This document shows, piece after piece, positions 19,808 through 27,793 of a stretch of DNA of 64,000 nt; positions within the stretch are counted from its first letter, which is position 1; each line of letters begins with the position of its first letter. Source of the DNA: Butyrivibrio fibrisolvens 16/4 (lineage in GTDB: Bacteria; Bacillota; Clostridia; Lachnospirales; Lachnospiraceae); the NCBI GenBank assembly GCA_000209815.1, contig FP929036.1, forward strand, positions 3,008,650-3,072,649, in the 5' to 3' direction. The notes beneath the pieces are model-generated. The model had not been told where the DNA came from and made no database searches. It saw only the letters and a list, made by a program, of their open reading frames with translations. The position numbers were made by a program, and so were the translations under genes.

Positions 19808-21042
19808 TTATATACGGTGTATAAAAAGCCCACTGCGAAGCTTTGGCTCAAACCAAGTGGATTTTGGTGGCATTAGAAGTCCTGCATCAGCCACAGCAAA
19901 GAGCTCTTCTATGCTGGTTGGATACATGGCAAAGGCAACCTTGCAATCTGTTGCACATCTGCGCTCAAGCTCTTCCAGACCTCTGATTCCGCCAACGAAA
20001 TCGATTCTTGCATCTGTTTTAGGGTCCTCTATGCCAAGAAGTGGTTCTAAAACAAGATTTTGTAATAAAGAAACATCTAACCCTTCAACAGGGTCATCTA
20101 CAAGTAGCTCTGGCTTCACCTGACATAAATACCAGGTTCCCTCAAGAAGCATACTCCACTGTCCCTTTTTTGATGGTCTGATAGGAGAATCTGAGGTTTC
20201 AAGAATATCTACAATAGAATCAAGCTCCTCTAATAATTCCTCCGCAGCAAATCCATTTAAATCTTTTACAACTCTGTTGTAATCATAGATTTTAAGCTCT
20301 TCATCTGGGAATAAAACTGATAGAAAGAAATTAAAATCCTCCCGTCCAGTATATCCAGGATTTTCTGTTCTGCGCTTTAATCCTACTTTCACAGCACTGG
20401 CTGCACGATGGTGACCGTCAGCAATGTAAATGCTATTCATCTTGTCAAAAGCTGTGGTAATCAAGGCCTTATCCATCATCTTGTCAATTACCCAGCAGCG
20501 ATGTCTGATTCCATCCTCTGCAACAAAATCATATACAGGTTTACGGCTCTTAGTCTTTTCAACCACTCCGTTTATTGTAGGATCTGACTTGTAGGCTAAA
20601 AAAATTGGGCCTGTCTGAGCACTGCAGGTATCCACATGTCTTATTCTGTCCTGCTCCTTTTCAGCCCTTGTATTTTCGTGTTTTTGATTACCGATTTCTC
20701 GTAATCATCTATTGACGCACAGGCAACAATACCGGTCTGTGATCGTCCATCCATAGTAAGTTCATAGAGATAGAAGAAATCCTCATCATCCTGAATGAAT
20801 CGCCCCTCTTCTATCCACTGATTCAGCATCTGAGCTGCCTTGTTATAAACATCATCAGAGTACATATCTACATCAGGTGCAAACTGTGTCTCTGGTCTGT
20901 CAATCGCCAAGAAAGAGCCTGGCTGTTCTTTTACCTTCTCGTAGGCTTCCTGTCTGTTATAAACATCATAAGGAAGGGCTGCTATTGTAGCAGCCTCTTC
21001 CTTAGTTGGACGTATCGCCTTAAATGGTACTACTAGTGCCAT
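19808..21042 (-). CDS. DUF1015 family protein, possible phosphoserine/serine enzyme (frameshifted)
   Basis: Conserved protein of about 411 residues once the frame is joined at T5 20681-20685 (one extra A on the coding strand gives VIKKHENTRAEKEQDRIRH). The N-terminal part has FKAIRPTKEEAATIAALPYDV; the second half carries IADGHHRAASA (DGHHR at 20405-20419), close to the motif of ParB/sulfiredoxin-fold serine kinases such as SerK and SbnI. It ends the serC-serA operon, three bases after serA. No serB-type phosphatase gene is present in the window, so an involvement in interconverting phosphoserine and serine is a reasonable inference, not a known function. A terminator follows. Confidence 0.85.
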
Positions 21043-21044
21043 AT

Positions 21045-22208
21045 TTATTTAACCACCCTTACTTTTATTACTCCTTCTACCTTCTCGATTTCTGATACAA
21101 CTGAATCGCTAAGCTTTGAGCCTAAATCAAGGAGTGTATATGCATAGTCGCCACGGCTCTTGTTTGTCATATCATCTACGTTTACATTCTCGTTACTAAG
21201 AATAGTTGTAAAGCTGGCAATAAGACCTGCTTTGTTTTTGTGAAGAATAGCAACACGTGACTCTGCAGTACAGATTCCCATATCGCAGTCAGGATAGTTT
21301 ACAGAATGCGTAATATTTCCATTCTCCATGTAATCCATAACCTCTTTAACTGCCATAACTGCACAGTTATCCTCAGCCTCCTCTGTAGAAGCCCCAAGGT
21401 GTGGTGTACAAATAACTCCCTTTGCACCTGCTACAGTTGGGTTTGCAAAATCTGTAACGTAATGACGAACCTTTCCTGCCTCGATACCATCAAGAACAGC
21501 CTTCTCATCAACAAGAAGATCACGGGCGAAATTCAAAATAACAACACCCTTCTTCATTAGCTGTACAGCTTCTTTATTAATCATTCCCTTTGTATCGTCA
21601 AGAAGAGGTACGTGTACTGTAATAAAATCGCACTCTCTATAAATTTCTTCAACGTTAGTAACGTGCTTTACATTTCTAGAAAGATTCCAAGCAGCATTTA
21701 CAGAAATGTATGGATCATATCCAAGAACCTCCATACCTAGACGATTAGCATCATTTGCAACCTTTACACCGATTGCTCCAAGGCCAATAACTCCAAGCTT
21801 TTTGCCAGCAATCTCTGTACCAGCAAAGGCCTTCTTTGCCTTTTCAGCAGTCTTTCCAATGTTCTCGTCATCTTTGTTTTCAAGCACCCAATTGATACCG
21901 CCTACGATGTCTCGGCTTGCAAGAAGCATTCCTGCAAAAACAAGCTCCTTTACACCGTTTGCATTTGCACCAGGAGTGTTGAATACTACGATTCCTTCCT
22001 CTGCACACTTATCAAGTGGAATATTATTTACACCGGCACCAGCACGAGCAACGCAAGAAAGCTTGTCTCCAAGCTCGATATCGTGCATAGCAGCTGAACG
22101 AACTAAAACTGCATCTGCCTCACCGATAGTCTCAACCTTTTTATAATCTGTAGAGAAGAGCTCTAAGCCCTTATTAGAAATTGGATTTAAGCAATTAAAA
22201 GTAAACAT
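21045..22208 (-). CDS. serA: D-3-phosphoglycerate dehydrogenase
   Basis: First step of serine synthesis: oxidises 3-phosphoglycerate to 3-phosphohydroxypyruvate with NAD. The 387-residue protein has the 2-hydroxyacid dehydrogenase fold with NAD motif GVIGLGAIG, catalytic Arg in NFARDLLVDE, Glu, and His in CTPHLGASTEEAE, and a C-terminal ACT domain (about 315-387, KAGLIASFTTILSNENVNVDDM), which is where serine feedback usually acts. It lacks the intermediate domain of longer forms. The start at 22208 has an AGGGGGTG site. It lies 12 bases after serC. Confidence 0.96.
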   Translation of the reverse strand: MFTFNCLNPISNKGLELFSTDYKKVETIGEADAVLVRSAAMHDIELGDKLSCVARAGAGVNNIPLDKCAEEGIVVFNTPGANANGVKELVFAGMLLASRDIVGGINWVLENKDDENIGKTAEKAKKAFAGTEIAGKKLGVIGLGAIGVKVANDANRLGMEVLGYDPYISVNAAWNLSRNVKHVTNVEEIYRECDFITVHVPLLDDTKGMINKEAVQLMKKGVVILNFARDLLVDEKAVLDGIEAGKVRHYVTDFANPTVAGAKGVICTPHLGASTEEAEDNCAVMAVKEVMDYMENGNITHSVNYPDCDMGICTAESRVAILHKNKAGLIASFTTILSNENVNVDDMTNKSRGDYAYTLLDLGSKLSDSVVSEIEKVEGVIKVRVVK

Positions 22209-22220
22209 CTAAAGCACCCC

Positions 22221-23303
22221 CTACGCATTTTCTTCTTCAAACTTCTTCATAAACTCAACTAGCTTCTCAACGCCCTCGATTGGCATTGCATTGTAGATAG
22301 AAGCTCTCATACCACCAACAGTTCTGTGTCCCTTAAGGTTTACAAAACCAGCTTCTGTTGCTTCCTTTACAAACTTAGCATCAAGCTCTTCATTCCCTGT
22401 AACAAAAGGAACATTCATAAGTGAACGGTCCTCCTTTCTAACAGTTCCCTTGAAAAGCTTTGAAGAATCAAGGTAATCATATAAAATCTTAGCCTTCTTC
22501 TCGTTGATTTCTTTCATAGCAGAAAGACCGCCATTCTTAAGAAGCCACTTGAACACCTTGCCGCAGATGTAGATATCGTAGCAAGGAGGTGTATTGTAAA
22601 GACTGTCGTTATCTGCCTGTGTCTTGTACTTAAGCATTGTAGGTGTGCCAGGAAGAACATCATCACGAATAAGATCCTCACGGATGATTACGATAACCAT
22701 ACCTGCAGGGCCTACGTTCTTCTGAACACCACCATAGATAATACCGTACTTAGTAACATCAACTGGCTCAGAAAGGAAGCATGAACTAACGTCTGCAACC
22801 AAATCCTTCCCCTTTGTATTTGGAAGAGTTTTGAACTTTGTGCCGTAGATTGTGTTGTTCTCACAGATATATACATAATCCATATCATCTGTGATAGGAA
22901 GATCCGAGCAATCTGGAATATAGCTGAAAGTCTCATCTGCAGAGGATGCAAGCTCTACAGCCTCTCCATACATCTTTGCCTCCTGATATGCCTTCTTTGC
23001 CCACTGTCCAGTGATAATATAACCAGCCTTCTTATTCTTCATAAGGTTCATTGGAACTGCTGCAAACTGCTGGCTTGCTCCACCCTGAAGGAAAAGAACC
23101 TTGTAATTATCAGGGATGTTCATAAGAGTTCTGATATCAGCCTCAGCTTCCTTGATAATCTGATCGAATACCTTAGAACGGTGACTCATCTCCATAACAG
23201 ACATTCCACAGCCCTTATAATCAAGCATTTCATCTGCTGCTTCCTTAAGAACCTCCTCTGGTAAAACTGCTGGTCCTGCACTAAAATTGAAAACTCTACT
23301 CAT
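22221..23303 (-). CDS. serC: Phosphoserine aminotransferase
   Basis: Second step of serine synthesis: PLP-dependent transfer of the amino group from glutamate to 3-phosphohydroxypyruvate. The 360-residue protein begins with the family hallmark RVFNFSAGPAVLPEEVL and has FLQGGASQQFAAVPMNL, the PLP-binding aspartate in VADVSSCFLSEP, and the Schiff-base lysine in YGGVQKNVGPAG. It starts with ATG after AGGAGATTT, 14 bases after ilvB, within the leu-ilv-ser operon. Confidence 0.97.
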   Translation of the reverse strand: MSRVFNFSAGPAVLPEEVLKEAADEMLDYKGCGMSVMEMSHRSKVFDQIIKEAEADIRTLMNIPDNYKVLFLQGGASQQFAAVPMNLMKNKKAGYIITGQWAKKAYQEAKMYGEAVELASSADETFSYIPDCSDLPITDDMDYVYICENNTIYGTKFKTLPNTKGKDLVADVSSCFLSEPVDVTKYGIIYGGVQKNVGPAGMVIVIIREDLIRDDVLPGTPTMLKYKTQADNDSLYNTPPCYDIYICGKVFKWLLKNGGLSAMKEINEKKAKILYDYLDSSKLFKGTVRKEDRSLMNVPFVTGNEELDAKFVKEATEAGFVNLKGHRTVGGMRASIYNAMPIEGVEKLVEFMKKFEEENA

Positions 23304-23317
23304 TACACTAAATCTCC

Positions 23318-24988
23318 TTAATCTTCTTTGAAAAACTCGTCAATAGGTGCTCCCGGTGCAACCATTGGCCATACCTTGTCATCTGAATCAATGATACAGT
23401 CAATGAGCACAGGCTTCTCGGATCGAAGTGCCTCCGATAAGGCCTGACTATATTCTTCCTGAGTTGTTACTCTATAGCCAACAGCTCCCATAGCTTCTGC
23501 AAGCTTGACGTAATCTACCCCGTCATCAAGTACAGTAGCTGAATAGTGCTTGTTGTAGAATAATGTCTGCCACTGTCTAACCATTCCCAGCACGTGATTA
23601 TTCACAACAATTTCTATAATAGGCAACTTTTCCCTGCTGGCAGTTGCCATTTCATTCATATTCATTCTAAAGCAGCCATCACCTGCTATATTGATGACAG
23701 CCTTACTTGGATTTCCTGACTTGGCACCGATTGCAGCTCCCAGACCATATCCCATTGTTCCCAGTCCACCTGATGTAAGAAGCTGATGTGGCTTCTTGAA
23801 TTTATAGAACTGCGCAGCCCACATCTGATGCTGACCAACCTCAGTAGCGACAATAGCATCGCCCTTTGTCTGACGATAAGCCTCTGCAACAATAAATGGA
23901 CCTGAAAGTCCCTCAGCTGGAACTGTAAGTGGATATTTCTCTGCAAGCTCTTTTGTTTTCTTCATCCAAGCCTGATGTTCCTGCTGTTCAAGAATCTTAT
24001 TAATTCTAGAAAGAATCTCCTTAACATCACCAATAACAGCATGGTCTGTCATAATATTTTTATTAATCTCGGCTGGATCAACATCAAATTGGAGAATCTT
24101 TGCATTGCTTGCAAACTTCGCTGGATTTCCAAGAACTCTATCAGAAAATCTTGTTCCGATTGCAATAAGCAAGTCGCACTCTGATACACTAAGGTTTGAT
24201 GCCTTTGTGCCGTGCATTCCAAGCATACCAAGATATCTTTCATCTGTACCGTTGAATGCACCCTTACCCATAAGTGTGTCGCATACTGGGGCATCAACCA
24301 AATCAACAAATTTCTTTAAATCCTTTGATGCATTTGCAAGTACTGCTCCACCACCAACAAAAATTACTGGCTTCTTTGATTTTTTAATAAGCTTTACAGC
24401 ATCATTTAAAGCTTCCTCTGTTATGCTCTTTTTTACCCTTCCTGCAGGAATAGGTTTCATTGGCATATATTCACATTTATTAGTAGGAGCAGTAACATCC
24501 TTTGGAACATCGATAAGTACAGGGCCTGGACGTCCACTTTTAGCAAGAAGAAATGCTCTGCGGATTGTATCAGCCAAATCCTTTACATCCTTAACGATGA
24601 AATTATGCTTTGTAATTGGCATTGTGATGCCTGCAATATCAATTTCCTGGAAGGAATCCTTTCCAAGAAGAGGAAGTGTAACATTGCAAGTAAGGGCAAC
24701 AAGTGGAACTGAATCCATATGCGCTGTGGCTATACCTGTAACAAGGTTTGTGGCACCTGGGCCGCTAGTTGCAAAGCACACGCCCACCTTACCTGTTGAG
24801 CGGGCATAGCCATCTGCAGCGTGGGCCGCACCCTGCTCATGGCTTGTAAGCACGTGATGAATCTCATCCTTATGCTTATAAAGCTCATCATATAAATTCA
24901 GGATTGCACCACCTGGATAACCAAATACGGTGTCGACTCCCTGCTCTTTCAAACATTCAATAATTATTTCTGAACCACTTAATAACAT
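23318..24988 (-). CDS. ilvB: Acetolactate synthase, large (catalytic) subunit
   Basis: ThDP-dependent condensation of two pyruvates to acetolactate (valine/leucine), or pyruvate with 2-oxobutyrate (isoleucine). The 556-residue protein has the ThDP glutamate region FGYPGGAILNLYDEL, SGPGATNLVTGIATA, the FAD-binding middle domain, and the C-terminal ThDP motif GDGCFRMNMNEMATA to VVNN. Its ribosome binding site GGAGG lies in the last codons of ilvD. No small regulatory subunit gene (ilvN/ilvH) is beside it; it must be elsewhere or absent. Confidence 0.95.
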   Translation of the reverse strand: MLLSGSEIIIECLKEQGVDTVFGYPGGAILNLYDELYKHKDEIHHVLTSHEQGAAHAADGYARSTGKVGVCFATSGPGATNLVTGIATAHMDSVPLVALTCNVTLPLLGKDSFQEIDIAGITMPITKHNFIVKDVKDLADTIRRAFLLAKSGRPGPVLIDVPKDVTAPTNKCEYMPMKPIPAGRVKKSITEEALNDAVKLIKKSKKPVIFVGGGAVLANASKDLKKFVDLVDAPVCDTLMGKGAFNGTDERYLGMLGMHGTKASNLSVSECDLLIAIGTRFSDRVLGNPAKFASNAKILQFDVDPAEINKNIMTDHAVIGDVKEILSRINKILEQQEHQAWMKKTKELAEKYPLTVPAEGLSGPFIVAEAYRQTKGDAIVATEVGQHQMWAAQFYKFKKPHQLLTSGGLGTMGYGLGAAIGAKSGNPSKAVINIAGDGCFRMNMNEMATASREKLPIIEIVVNNHVLGMVRQWQTLFYNKHYSATVLDDGVDYVKLAEAMGAVGYRVTTQEEYSQALSEALRSEKPVLIDCIIDSDDKVWPMVAPGAPIDEFFKED

Positions 24989-24990
24989 TA

Positions 24991-26661
24991 TTAAACCTCC
25001 GGTGTCTGAAGTATCGCTCCTCTATTTCCTGATGTAACCTGCGCAGCATATCGACGTAGGTAGCCTGTGGTAACCTTAGGCTCACGTGGCTGCCACTTTG
25101 CTTTACGTTTAGCAAGCTCTTCGTCGCTTACCTTTAGTGTCATGGTGTAATTTGGAATATCGATGGCGATAATGTCGCCCTCTTCCACAAGTGCGATTGG
25201 TCCGCCTACGGCTGCTTCTGGGGAAACATGTCCGATGGAAGCTCCACGGCTAGCTCCTGAGAATCGTCCATCTGTAATGAGAGCAACCGATGAGCCAAGT
25301 CCCATACCAGCAATAGCTGATGTAGGATTGAGCATCTCTCTCATACCAGGGCCGCCCTTTGGTCCTTCGTAACGGATAACTACCACATCACCCTCTACGA
25401 TTTTGCCACCCTTAATAGCTTCGATAGCATCTTCTTCTGAGTCAAATACTCTTGCTGGACCTTCGTGTACAAGCATCTCTGGCACTACAGCGCTTCGTTT
25501 TACAACTGAACCATCTGGTGCAAGATTTCCCTTAAGAACTGCAAGTCCACCAGTCTTTGTATATGGATTGTCCACAGGTCTGATAACCTCTGGATTTCTA
25601 TTTACTGCATTTTTAATATTTTCTCCAACTGTCTTTCCAGTAACTGTCATGCAATCTGTGTTAAGTAATCCGATGTCTGCAAGTTCCTTCATAACAGCCC
25701 ATACACCGCCTGCCTCATTAAGGTCTTCCATATATGTAGGACCTGCTGGTGCAAGATGGCAAAGGTTTGGAGTCTTTTCTGAAATAGGATTTGCAAACTC
25801 AATATCAAAGTCAAAGCCAATCTCATGAGCAATTGCTGGGAGATGAAGCATTGAGTTTGTTGAGCATCCAAGGGCCATATCAACTGTAAGAGCATTAAGG
25901 ATTGCATCCTTTGTCATAATCTGACGAGCTGTGATGCCCTTATTATACATATCCATAACAGCGTAACCAGCGTGCTTTGCAAGACGGATTCTTTCTGAGT
26001 AAACTGCTGGGATTGTACCATTTCCTCTAAGTCCCATTCCAAGTGCCTCTGTAAGGCAATTCATAGAATTAGCTGTGTACATACCTGAGCAGCTTCCACA
26101 TGTAGGACAAACATTTTCTACGTAGTTTTCTACATCCTCTTCTGTCATTGTGCCAGCTGCATAAGCACCAACTGCCTCAAACATAGAAGAAAGGGAGCGC
26201 TTCTGACCGCCTACATGTCCTGCAAGCATTGGGCCGCCTGATACGAAAACTGTAGGAAGGTCAAGTCTTGCTGCTGCCATCAAAAGTCCTGGCACATTCT
26301 TATCACAGTTTGGAACCATAACAAGGGCATCAAACTGATGGGCAAGTGCCATACACTCTGTTGAATCTGCAATCAAATCTCTAGTTACAAGGGAATATTT
26401 CATTCCGATGTGTCCCATTGCAATACCATCACATACAGCAATGGCTGGGAACACTACTGGAACACCGCCAGCCTCGGCTACGCCTAGCTTTACGGCGTCC
26501 ACGATTTTATCAATATTCATATGACCTGGTACTATCTCGTTGTACGAGGATACGATACCAACCATAGGCTTTTTCATTTCTTCTGGTGTAAATCCCAGTG
26601 CATTAAACAAGGAACGGGCTGGTGCCTGCTGCATACCAGCTCTAGCATTGTCACTTCTCAT
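24991..26661 (-). CDS. ilvD: Dihydroxy-acid dehydratase
   Basis: Iron-sulfur dehydratase converting 2,3-dihydroxyisovalerate (or the methylvalerate) to the 2-oxo acid. The 556-residue protein has the cluster-linked cysteines in [26 protein letters not shown] and [10 protein letters not shown], and [20 protein letters not shown]. It begins at ATG after AGGAGGAG, 17 bases after leuB. As an oxygen-sensitive Fe-S enzyme it fits an anaerobe. ilvC, which makes its substrate, is not in the window. Confidence 0.97.
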
Positions 26662-26678
26662 TATTGACTCCTCCTAAT

Positions 26679-27770
26679 CTATAAACGTTCTACGATTAAA
26701 TCGCCCATTTCGGAAGTTCCGACCTGCTTTACGGTGCTGCCGTCGCGAGGCATAATGTCGATTGTACGGTAGCCATCCTTAAGTACCTGCTTTACAGCGG
26801 CTTCGATGGAATCAGCCTCTGCATCAAGGTCGAAGCTGTAGCGAAGCATCATAGCTGCCGAAAGTATAGTAGCAATTGGATTTGCGATGCCTTTTCCTGC
26901 AATGTCTGGTGCACTGCCGCCTGATGGCTCATAAAGTCCGAACTTTGTATCATTAAGTGATGCAGATGAAAGCATGCCGATGGAACCGGTAACCATAGAT
27001 GCTTCATCGCTCAAAATATCTCCAAACATGTTCTCAGTAAGAATAACATCAAACTGACGTGGATCCTTCACTAGCTGCATAGCACAGTTATCTACAAGCA
27101 TGTGCTCGTACTGTACCTCTGGATAATCCTTAGCAACCTCTTCCACTATTTTGCGCCACAATCTGGAGCTGTCTAAAACGTTTGCCTTATCAACTGAAGT
27201 AACCTTCTTGCGACGTTTCATAGCAATATCAAAGCCTCGCTTTGCGATACGACGAATTTCTGACTCGCTATAGGTAAGGCTGTCACGGGCAACAAACTGT
27301 CCATCCTCTTCTTTTGTGGAACGTTCACCAAAATACAGGCCACCTGTAAGCTCACGCATAATCATCATATCGAAGCCATCACCGATGATGTCATCTCTAA
27401 GTGGACAGGCCTCTTTCAATTCTTCATATAAGTATGCTGGTCGCAGATTTGCGAAAAGATTAAGACTCTTTCTAAGCTTCAATAGTCCTGCCTCAGGACG
27501 TTTATCTGCTGGAAGCTTGTACCAAGGACTGGTAGAGGTGTTGCCACCAATAGAACCCATTAGAACTGCATCAGATGCCAAAGCCGCTTTTATCGCCTCA
27601 TCTGTGAGAGGCTCGCCGCAGGCATCAATTGAACACCCACCCATAAGTATTTCGGTGTAGTTGAACTTATGTCCAAATTTATCACCAATAGCATCAAGAA
27701 CTTTTACAGCCTCTGTGACAATTTCTGGACCAATTCCGTCTCCTCTAATTACGCCAACATTGTAATTCAT
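26679..27770 (-). CDS. leuB: 3-isopropylmalate dehydrogenase
   Basis: NAD-dependent oxidative decarboxylation of 3-isopropylmalate in leucine synthesis. The 363-residue protein carries GDGIGPEIV, the substrate-binding arginines (LRKSLNLFANLRP, MIMRELTGGLYFG), Lys in RKKVTSVDKANVL, and metal-binding aspartates in NMFGDILSDEAS. Two ATGs are six bases apart; the second (27770) has AAGGA with correct spacing. It is the first gene of the leuB-ilvD-ilvB-serC-serA-DUF1015 operon; leuA, leuC and leuD are not next to it. A CodY-like sequence lies just upstream. Confidence 0.96.
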   Translation of the reverse strand: MNYNVGVIRGDGIGPEIVTEAVKVLDAIGDKFGHKFNYTEILMGGCSIDACGEPLTDEAIKAALASDAVLMGSIGGNTSTSPWYKLPADKRPEAGLLKLRKSLNLFANLRPAYLYEELKEACPLRDDIIGDGFDMMIMRELTGGLYFGERSTKEEDGQFVARDSLTYSESEIRRIAKRGFDIAMKRRKKVTSVDKANVLDSSRLWRKIVEEVAKDYPEVQYEHMLVDNCAMQLVKDPRQFDVILTENMFGDILSDEASMVTGSIGMLSSASLNDTKFGLYEPSGGSAPDIAGKGIANPIATILSAAMMLRYSFDLDAEADSIEAAVKQVLKDGYRTIDIMPRDGSTVKQVGTSEMGDLIVERL

Positions 27771-27793
27771 AAGCATTCCTTCCCATATGTATC

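What the first reader, a model, noticed from the sequence alone, without database searches (positions are those of the whole stretch)
19808..21042. DUF1015 with DGHHR motif ends the serC-serA operon: candidate enzyme for the phosphoserine-serine step
The operon makes phosphoserine through serA and serC but no phosphoserine phosphatase is visible. The last gene carries DGHHR-x-x-A (20405-20419), a motif shared in pattern with ParB/sulfiredoxin-fold serine kinases such as SerK and SbnI. It could catalyse phosphoserine/serine interconversion (for example dephosphorylation, or the reverse kinase with ADP). DUF1015 has no assigned activity that I know of; this is inferred from motif and context.
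Basis: inference. Interest (0 to 1): 0.72.

Follow-up and report, generated by a model that had tools for sequence, protein, structure and literature searches.

The report
Serine-kinase-like protein beside serine genes
A protein family of unknown function that sits at the end of a serine-making gene cluster in many gut and rumen bacteria looks, in predicted shape and key motifs, like enzymes that add phosphate to free serine, which gives a concrete way to test what it does.

Summary
A DUF1015 gene with DGHHR (20405-20419) ends an ilvB-serC-serA cluster. The premise "no phosphoserine phosphatase" fails genome-wide: no SerB passes its cut-off, but thrH (phosphoserine phosphatase/homoserine phosphotransferase) lies beside hom, itself frame-interrupted here and intact in a same-genus genome. 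The fold guess holds. A confident AlphaFold model of an intact relative has nine PDB matches at E<=0.001, all SerK- or SbnI-type serine kinases. A diverse DUF1015 profile matches SerK (hhalign E 3.6e-7, score 55; best of 100 shuffles 30). HE-x-T, DGHHR and K-S/C-T are kept in 52 of 52 distinct aligned proteins; five divergent loci were left out of that count and lack the full motifs where readable. Best reading: a SerK-like serine/phosphoserine phosphotransferase, more likely a kinase coupled to reversible SerC/SerA than a phosphatase. DUF1015 does not anticorrelate with ThrH. Activity, donor and direction are untested.

The parts
20641..21042 (-). DUF1015 gene, 5' part: ORF of 133 aa, matches PF06245 positions 2-120
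19808..20701 (-). DUF1015 gene, 3' part: open frame of 297 residues, matches PF06245 positions 119-325 plus the C-terminal region
20681..20685 (-). run of five A where the two reading frames part; against 6 of 6 Pseudobutyrivibrio loci aligned, a one-base gap falls here (five at 20680, one at 20687)
20666..20680 (-). HENTR motif; H, E and T invariant in 52 of 52 distinct diverse members; candidate equivalent of the SerK Glu30 region (KPHE). Inference
20405..20419 (-). DGHHR motif, aligned to SerK 69-73
19841..19873 (-). C-terminal MPPKSTWFEPK motif, aligned to SerK PKTT (220-223)
21045..22208 (-). serA-type 2-hydroxyacid dehydrogenase (387 aa; weak ACT domain; scores below the curated PGDH cut-offs)
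22221..23303 (-). serC, phosphoserine transaminase (over cut-off)
23318..24988 (-). ilvB, acetolactate synthase large subunit (over cut-off)
24991..26661 (-). ilvD, dihydroxy-acid dehydratase (over cut-off)
26679..27776 (-). leuB, 3-isopropylmalate dehydrogenase (over cut-off)

Best explanation
DUF1015 is a SerK/SbnI-like enzyme that moves a phosphate between a small donor (ADP, ATP or pyrophosphate) and free L-serine. The most likely net direction is serine to phosphoserine. Together with the reversible SerC and SerA of its own operon it would let the cell bring serine back to 3-phosphoglycerate, or set the phosphoserine pool, as proposed for archaeal SerK. In this organism phosphoserine can become serine through ThrH. 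Shown here: gene order, motifs, predicted fold, profile match, presence of a ThrH gene. Inferred: activity, substrate, donor and direction. The copy in this assembly is interrupted by a frame change that is probably a sequencing error or a very recent mutation.
For: AlphaFold model of the L006 protein: pLDDT 92.6, pTM 0.88. Foldseek against PDB: 9 of 9 hits at E<=0.001 are SerK- or SbnI-type (eight named so; 1vk1 is deposited as hypothetical and is 88% identical to SerK 5x0b), E 1.2e-7 to 2.3e-6, probability 1.00, target TM 0.52-0.63, 297-315 alignment columns against 232-254-aa targets; next hit E 0.065. hhalign of a diverse profile (54 rows, 52 distinct) against SerK: E 3.6e-7, score 54.7, best of 100 column shuffles 30.2; the significant block is C-terminal, and a permissive setting gives one collinear alignment over residues 145-404 and SerK 17-236. 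With the 58 close relatives only: score 43.4 on the DGHHR block against 30.5 for the best of 30 shuffles. NCBIfam's archaeal SerK model appears as a weak hit in 5 of 58 members (best E 0.038) and in 1 of 8 distant members (L184, E 0.012). Order serC-serA-DUF1015 in 57 of 77 testable relatives; class V aminotransferase, serA-like gene and DUF1015 together in L181 and L184; a serC, an NAD(P)-binding-domain gene and a DUF1015 gene are printed as a conserved trio in two Porphyromonas species (PMC11316588, passage). DUF1015 associates with serC in 200 Lachnospiraceae (Fisher p 4e-4) and in 299 genomes of the phylum (both 60, DUF1015 only 89, serC only 31, neither 119; p 2.6e-4). SerK precedent: in Desulfurococcales serK lies by serA and aminotransferase genes, and SerK is proposed to feed serine into 3-phosphoglycerate (PMC5120207, discussion section read).
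Against: No activity is known or tested. Query TM is only 0.34-0.39 and rmsd 5.2-8.1: the protein is about 170 residues longer than SerK. The curated SerK cut-off is far from met (13 bits against 380), and unrelated families reach similar weak E-values in the same scan. With the close relatives, blocks tested apart are not significant: N-terminal 4 of 100 shuffles, C-terminal 25 of 100 (49 of 100 in global mode), everything after DGHHR 53 of 100. In the diverse profile the DGHHR block on its own is not significant (score 15.6). hhalign does not place SerK Glu30 on the HE motif; HE to DGHHR is 84-92 residues here against 39 in SerK. DGHHR is not specific to serine kinases: it is printed as the conserved motif of ParB-type toxin domains thought to be nucleases (PMC3482391, passage). 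27 of 32 Lachnospiraceae without DUF1015 still have serC at E<=1e-60. 17 of 20 further loci fetched show no hit to the window's serA. A divergent PF06245 subgroup lacks HE, GHHR and KST. No glycine riboswitch was found at Rfam gathering scores in the window stretch 15000-40000 or in 34 loci, against the printed link.
Confidence: 0.55

Rival explanations
1. One reading: DUF1015 is the missing phosphoserine-to-serine enzyme of many Firmicutes, either a hydrolase on the SerK fold or a phosphotransferase that passes the phosphate to AMP/ADP or to phosphate (making pyrophosphate).
For: Same fold and motifs. SerB over cut-off in 0 of 200 Lachnospiraceae and 1 of 299 genomes of the phylum. 94 of 168 DUF1015-positive Lachnospiraceae have neither SerB over cut-off nor ThrH at E<=1e-20. 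Literature calls the gap open: 450 gut genomes with SerA and SerC but none of four SerB types (PMC9026213, passages).
Against: This genome has ThrH. No anticorrelation with ThrH (74/168 with DUF1015 against 12/32 without, p 0.56) or with weak SerB hits (6 of 13 have DUF1015). From general knowledge, transfer of phosphoserine phosphate to AMP or ADP is strongly uphill; only a PPi-linked enzyme would be near reversible. Other phosphatase types (for example PspA-like PF00300, YsaA) were not searched.
Confidence: 0.2
2. DUF1015 is a non-catalytic sensor or regulator that binds a nucleotide and serine or phosphoserine and adjusts the serine/branched-chain operon, as SbnI doubles as a regulator.
For: SbnI is described as both enzyme and regulator (PMC9641203, passage). 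Eleven of 28 purified ParB-fold proteins bound NTPs in a survey that lists 'DU1015' among the fusions selected (PMC12704722, passages). A divergent subgroup has altered motifs.
Against: H, E, T, DGHHR, K and T of the motifs are invariant in 52 of 52 distinct aligned members. No family other than DUF1015 exceeds its Pfam cut-off in the DUF1015 proteins scanned. No DUF1015 member is named among the binders in the passages read.
Confidence: 0.12
3. DUF1015 is a SerK-fold phosphotransferase for a different small substrate (for example glycerate, hydroxypyruvate, homoserine or threonine).
For: Only 11-15% identity to SerK/SbnI in the structural alignments; many distant members sit outside serine clusters.
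Against: Repeated clustering with serC-serA, or with another aminotransferase and a serA-like gene, and association with serC.
Confidence: 0.13

Closest known systems
SerK, ADP-dependent free L-serine kinase (Thermococcus TK0378, PDB 5x0b; Pyrococcus homologue 1vk1)
   Same: Predicted fold over most of SerK, DGHHR, a C-terminal PK-S/T-T motif, an HE motif ahead of them, and a place beside serA and an aminotransferase as in Desulfurococcales
   Different: About 170 residues longer, HE-DGHHR spacing 84-92 against 39, 14-15% identity, far below the curated SerK score; activity unknown
SbnI, staphylococcal O-phosphoserine synthase (PDB 6nr6, 5uje, 5ujd)
   Same: Top structural match (6nr6); ParB-fold free serine kinase reported to need Glu20 and Asp58
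   Different: Siderophore pathway rather than a serine operon; chains of 242-256 aa; 11-13% identity
ParB / ParB-CTPase fold (PF02195, PF08857)
   Same: Weak ParBc_2 hits in 10 of 58 members (best E 0.0088) and parB_part hits in 6 of 58 (best E 0.0015); one printed survey lists 'DU1015' among ParB-fold fusions
   Different: No ParB entry among the 50 rows shown of 300 Foldseek matches; the weak hits were below curated cut-offs where a score was shown
ThrH, phosphoserine phosphatase/homoserine phosphotransferase
   Same: Acts on phosphoserine by its family name; present in this genome beside hom
   Different: HAD-type protein (HAD-IB models also match), a different kind of protein from DUF1015; it is the named candidate for the phosphoserine-to-serine step here

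Membership tests
PF06245 (DUF1015) | Pfam score over gathering cut-off 25.8 | tested here: met
   134.4 and 232.1 bits for the two frames; 380 bits for intact L006
SerK/SbnI-like free serine kinases (fold group) | Same overall fold | tested here: met
   Model pLDDT 92.6; the nine matches at E<=0.001 are all SerK/SbnI-type. A predicted model of a relative, not a solved structure
SerK/SbnI-like free serine kinases (fold group) | DGHHR with an Asp needed for activity (SbnI Asp58 by report; SerK position 69) | tested here: met
   52 of 52 distinct aligned members, aligned to SerK 69-73. That SbnI Asp58 is this Asp is inferred
SerK/SbnI-like free serine kinases (fold group) | Catalytic Glu (SerK Glu30, role recalled, mutated in the PDB entries; SbnI Glu20 by report) | tested here: inconclusive
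   HE invariant in 52 of 52 and followed by a predicted helix, but no alignment places it on Glu30; spacing 84-92 against 39
SerK/SbnI-like free serine kinases (fold group) | Phosphorylates free serine | not testable with these tools
   Needs an enzyme assay
Archaeal SerK equivalog (NCBIfam NF053625) | Score over curated cut-off 380 | tested here: not met
   13 bits for L006, 14.7 for L184. So it is called SerK-like here and not filed as this equivalog
Phosphoserine phosphatase SerB (TIGR00338) | HAD-type SerB over 144.15 bits in this genome | tested here: not met
   Best 56.5 bits, and that is the ThrH gene
ThrH (NF010109 / TIGR02137), gene at C1:206 kb | Score over curated cut-off | tested here: met
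   NF010109 236.9 bits (cut-off 133); TIGR02137 185.9, below its 223.4, the match starting at profile position 31 because the N-terminus lies in another frame; the same-genus copy in L190 meets both

The most novel reading that the evidence does not exclude
DUF1015 is a widespread, unrecognised bacterial family of PPi-linked, reversible serine/phosphoserine phosphotransferases. In Firmicutes without SerB and ThrH it closes the serine pathway (phosphoserine + Pi to serine + PPi), saving the phosphate bond; where serine is plentiful it runs the serC-serA pathway backwards.
Probability: 0.12. Interest if true: 0.85.

Novelty: new variant of a known kind. Interest (0 to 1): 0.63.

Why it matters
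DUF1015 is in 168 of 200 Lachnospiraceae and 149 of 299 genomes of the phylum sampled here (these counts include a divergent subgroup), and Pfam gives it no function. The serine pathway of many of these bacteria has a printed open gap at SerB (PMC9026213, PMC7478625; passages read). A fold and motif link to free serine kinases turns this into a simple enzyme assay and would change how serine auxotrophy and serine use are predicted for gut and rumen bacteria.

Tried and rejected
Strict replacement of SerB or ThrH by DUF1015: rejected as a general rule, since there is no anticorrelation and two of three DUF1015-positive control genomes also have SerB over cut-off (Bacteroides ihuae, Methanosarcina acetivorans).

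A phosphatase in place of DUF1015 beside serA: I looked at up to three ORFs downstream of serA in 20 of the 27 Lachnospiraceae that have serC but no DUF1015 (three contigs ended within 4 kb); nothing recurrent that I could name as a phosphatase. This was judged by eye from the printed starts of the sequences, not scored against families.

Glycine riboswitch: printed for COG4198 (PMC2211319, passages); not found at Rfam gathering scores in window 15000-40000 or in 34 loci.

Programmed frameshift at the A-run: considered, not favoured. 80 of 80 relatives have no shift, and thrH in the same genome is interrupted beside an A-run too (one search places a two-base gap there).

I first noted an essential topoisomerase gene as broken (note); one search shows it intact (746 aa), so that argument is withdrawn.

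The idea that DUF1015 recharges phosphoserine for ThrH, in place of a homoserine kinase, is attractive here (no ThrB over cut-off; the best hit is IspE) but DUF1015 and ThrH are not associated.

Residue equivalence could not be checked in 3D because the model's coordinates are not among the files given.

I recall, unverified, reports of PPi-dependent serine kinases in Thermotoga or Entamoeba; the searches found none. If such enzymes are DUF1015 proteins, the novelty here falls to 'already known'.

Full report
OBSERVATION. The minus strand of 19808-27776 carries, in order of transcription, leuB, ilvD, ilvB, serC, serA and a DUF1015 gene. serC, ilvB, ilvD and leuB exceed curated cut-offs; serA is a 387-aa form with a weak ACT domain match and scores below the PGDH models' cut-offs. 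DGHHR is at 20419-20405. The DUF1015 gene is not one frame here: 133 aa in ORF 20641-21042 match profile positions 2-120, and an overlapping frame (20701-19808) matches 119-325. The frames part at five A's (20681-20685). In 80 of 80 relatives fetched from named records the site is read through in one frame (L032 begins at its contig end). Of six Pseudobutyrivibrio loci aligned to the window, five place a one-base gap at 20680 and the sixth at 20687. The best relative's protein is 91% identical over the 3' part, so there is no sign of decay.

ORGANISM. The closest loci are Pseudobutyrivibrio (88-91% identity for the four closest named isolates). The same-genus genome G130 has a contig of 570,567 bases, the same length as one of Pseudobutyrivibrio sp. 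YE44, so the window's genus is Pseudobutyrivibrio by inference.

IS THE STEP MISSING? SerB: no match over cut-off in this genome. Its best match, 56.5 bits at C1:206185, is a ThrH gene: 236.9 bits against NF010109 (cut-off 133) and 185.9 against TIGR02137 (cut-off 223.4), directly downstream of a homoserine dehydrogenase gene. Its first 30 or so residues lie in another frame. The same-genus copy is intact, meets both cut-offs and also lies beside hom. NCBIfam names ThrH a bifunctional phosphoserine phosphatase/homoserine phosphotransferase. ThrB is not found over cut-off: the best hit is IspE.

WHAT DUF1015 LOOKS LIKE. AlphaFold2 on the intact L006 protein, with an alignment of 58 sequences, gave pLDDT 92.6 and pTM 0.88. 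Foldseek against PDB gave nine matches at E<=0.001: free serine kinase SerK (5x0e, 5x0k, 5x0g, 5x0b, 5x0j), its Pyrococcus homologue 1vk1 (deposited as hypothetical; 88% identical to 5x0b) and SbnI (6nr6, 5uje, 5ujd), E 1.2e-7 to 2.3e-6. The tenth match is E 0.065. ParB structures are in the PDB but are not among the 50 rows shown of 300.

SEQUENCE SUPPORT. PDB sequence searches with the family find no SerK. hhalign of 58 close relatives against SerK (5x0b, 1vk1) gave 77.6% probability on the DGHHR block, score 43.4; the best of 30 column shuffles was 30.5 and the reversed sequence gave 14.6. Separate tests with this shallow profile were not significant: N-terminal block 4 of 100 shuffles, C-terminal block 25 of 100 (49 of 100 in global mode), all after DGHHR 53 of 100. 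A more diverse profile (L006 plus 53 rows, down to 22% identity) gave probability 92.9, E 3.6e-7, score 54.7, best of 100 shuffles 30.2. There the significant block is C-terminal; the DGHHR block as a separate alignment scores only 15.6; a permissive setting gives one collinear alignment that holds both. These 54 rows are 52 distinct proteins; in all 52, H122, E123, T125, R133, A208, DGHHR 209-213, R257, L322, P392, K394, T396, F398, P400, K401 and G405 are invariant. Rows dropped before that count: of 58 loci given, five (L172-L176) had no hit at E 1e-10. Four of these (L172, L173, L174, L176) are recognisable relatives that keep a TE-x-T and a DG-x-H but lack HE, GHHR and K-S-T; L175 gave no hit with this profile. 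Presence counts by PF06245 therefore include a divergent subgroup whose function may differ. Distant members with motifs read 'LPHEQT' or 'IPHEFT', then 'ADGHHR', then 'MPQKSTYFYPK'; SerK reads 'KPHEQL' (Glu30), 'VDGHHR', 'SPKTTRHVLP'. HE to DGHHR is 84-92 residues in DUF1015 and 39 in SerK, so an insertion must be assumed and the Glu30 equivalence is inference. The catalytic role of SerK Glu30 is recalled; the PDB titles show it mutated. DGHHR also occurs in ParB-type toxin domains (PMC3482391, passage), so it does not by itself point to serine.

CONTEXT ACROSS GENOMES. Of 80 relatives, 77 had enough upstream DNA to test (L032, L033 and L065 were set aside); 60 have serA in the locus, 51 of them ending within 500 nt of DUF1015, and 57 show the order serC-serA-DUF1015; 17 have no serA in the locus. 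Of 20 further loci fetched, three show a hit to the window's serA (L181, L184, L185) and one to its serC (L185). In L181 and L184 a different class V aminotransferase precedes the serA-like gene. In 200 Lachnospiraceae: DUF1015 168, serC 194 at E<=1e-60, SerB over cut-off 0 (4 at E<=1e-20), ThrH 86 at E<=1e-20 (84 over cut-off). Five of six genomes without serC also lack DUF1015 (Fisher p 4e-4); ThrH is in 74 of 168 with DUF1015 and 12 of 32 without (p 0.56). In 299 genomes of the phylum: DUF1015 149, serC 91, both 60, p 2.6e-4; SerB over cut-off 1; 13 SerB hits at E<=1e-20, of which 6 genomes have DUF1015. Genomes are related, so these p values are not independent tests.

MECHANISM. SerK makes phosphoserine from serine with ADP, and its authors propose that the phosphoserine aminotransferase and 3-phosphoglycerate dehydrogenase then return the carbon to 3-phosphoglycerate; in Desulfurococcales serK lies near such genes (PMC5120207, discussion section read). 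The DUF1015 operon has the same three parts. The forward kinase direction is therefore the most economical reading. Reverse use with AMP or ADP as acceptor is thermodynamically poor (general knowledge, not computed); with phosphate as acceptor it could be near equilibrium, which leaves the bolder reading open.

LITERATURE. 'DUF1015' is in 2 papers of the library and 'COG4198' in 1. In the passages read, one DUF1015 paper lists it only as a neighbour gene and the other in a table of predicted pathways under electron transport chain. PMC2211319 reports a glycine riboswitch upstream of five COG4198 genes (passages); I could not reproduce that in my loci. PMC12704722 lists 'DU1015' among ParB-fold fusions selected for binding tests (passages), so a ParB-fold link was already in print. 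I found no paper tying DUF1015 to serine kinases in the searches; most subscription papers and all preprints are outside that library.

VERDICT. The gene is real and typical in place, interrupted in this assembly. Activity is unproven.

Noticed in passing
L083:1432-2030 (G000:C1:206 kb): thrH beside hom is split over two frames beside an A-run in this assembly; the same-genus copy (L190:4177-4818) is intact. With DUF1015 this makes two genes interrupted near A-runs, which hints at homopolymer errors in the assembly.
   Followed up: yes
L189:293-832: A phosphoglycolate-phosphatase-like HAD gene ends early after a run of Lys codons; by eye its C-terminus looks out of frame, a possible third such interruption.
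   Followed up: no
L172, L173, L174, L176: A divergent PF06245 subgroup keeps TE-x-T and DG-x-H but lacks HE, GHHR and KST; it may be an inactive or repurposed paralogue of DUF1015.
   Followed up: partly
L181:8094-10885, L184:4996-7015: Class V aminotransferase plus serA-like gene plus DUF1015 in which the aminotransferase is not SerC_1 (closest models BhcA and PhnW types, below cut-off): a non-orthologous partner in the same layout.
   Followed up: partly
L109-L128: Twenty Lachnospiraceae with serC and serA but no DUF1015 carry varied genes after serA (judged by eye); how they dephosphorylate phosphoserine is open where ThrH is also absent.
   Followed up: partly
G000 whole genome: No homoserine kinase ThrB over cut-off: the best TIGR00191 hit is IspE (L186). 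ThrH may be the route to homoserine phosphate.
   Followed up: partly
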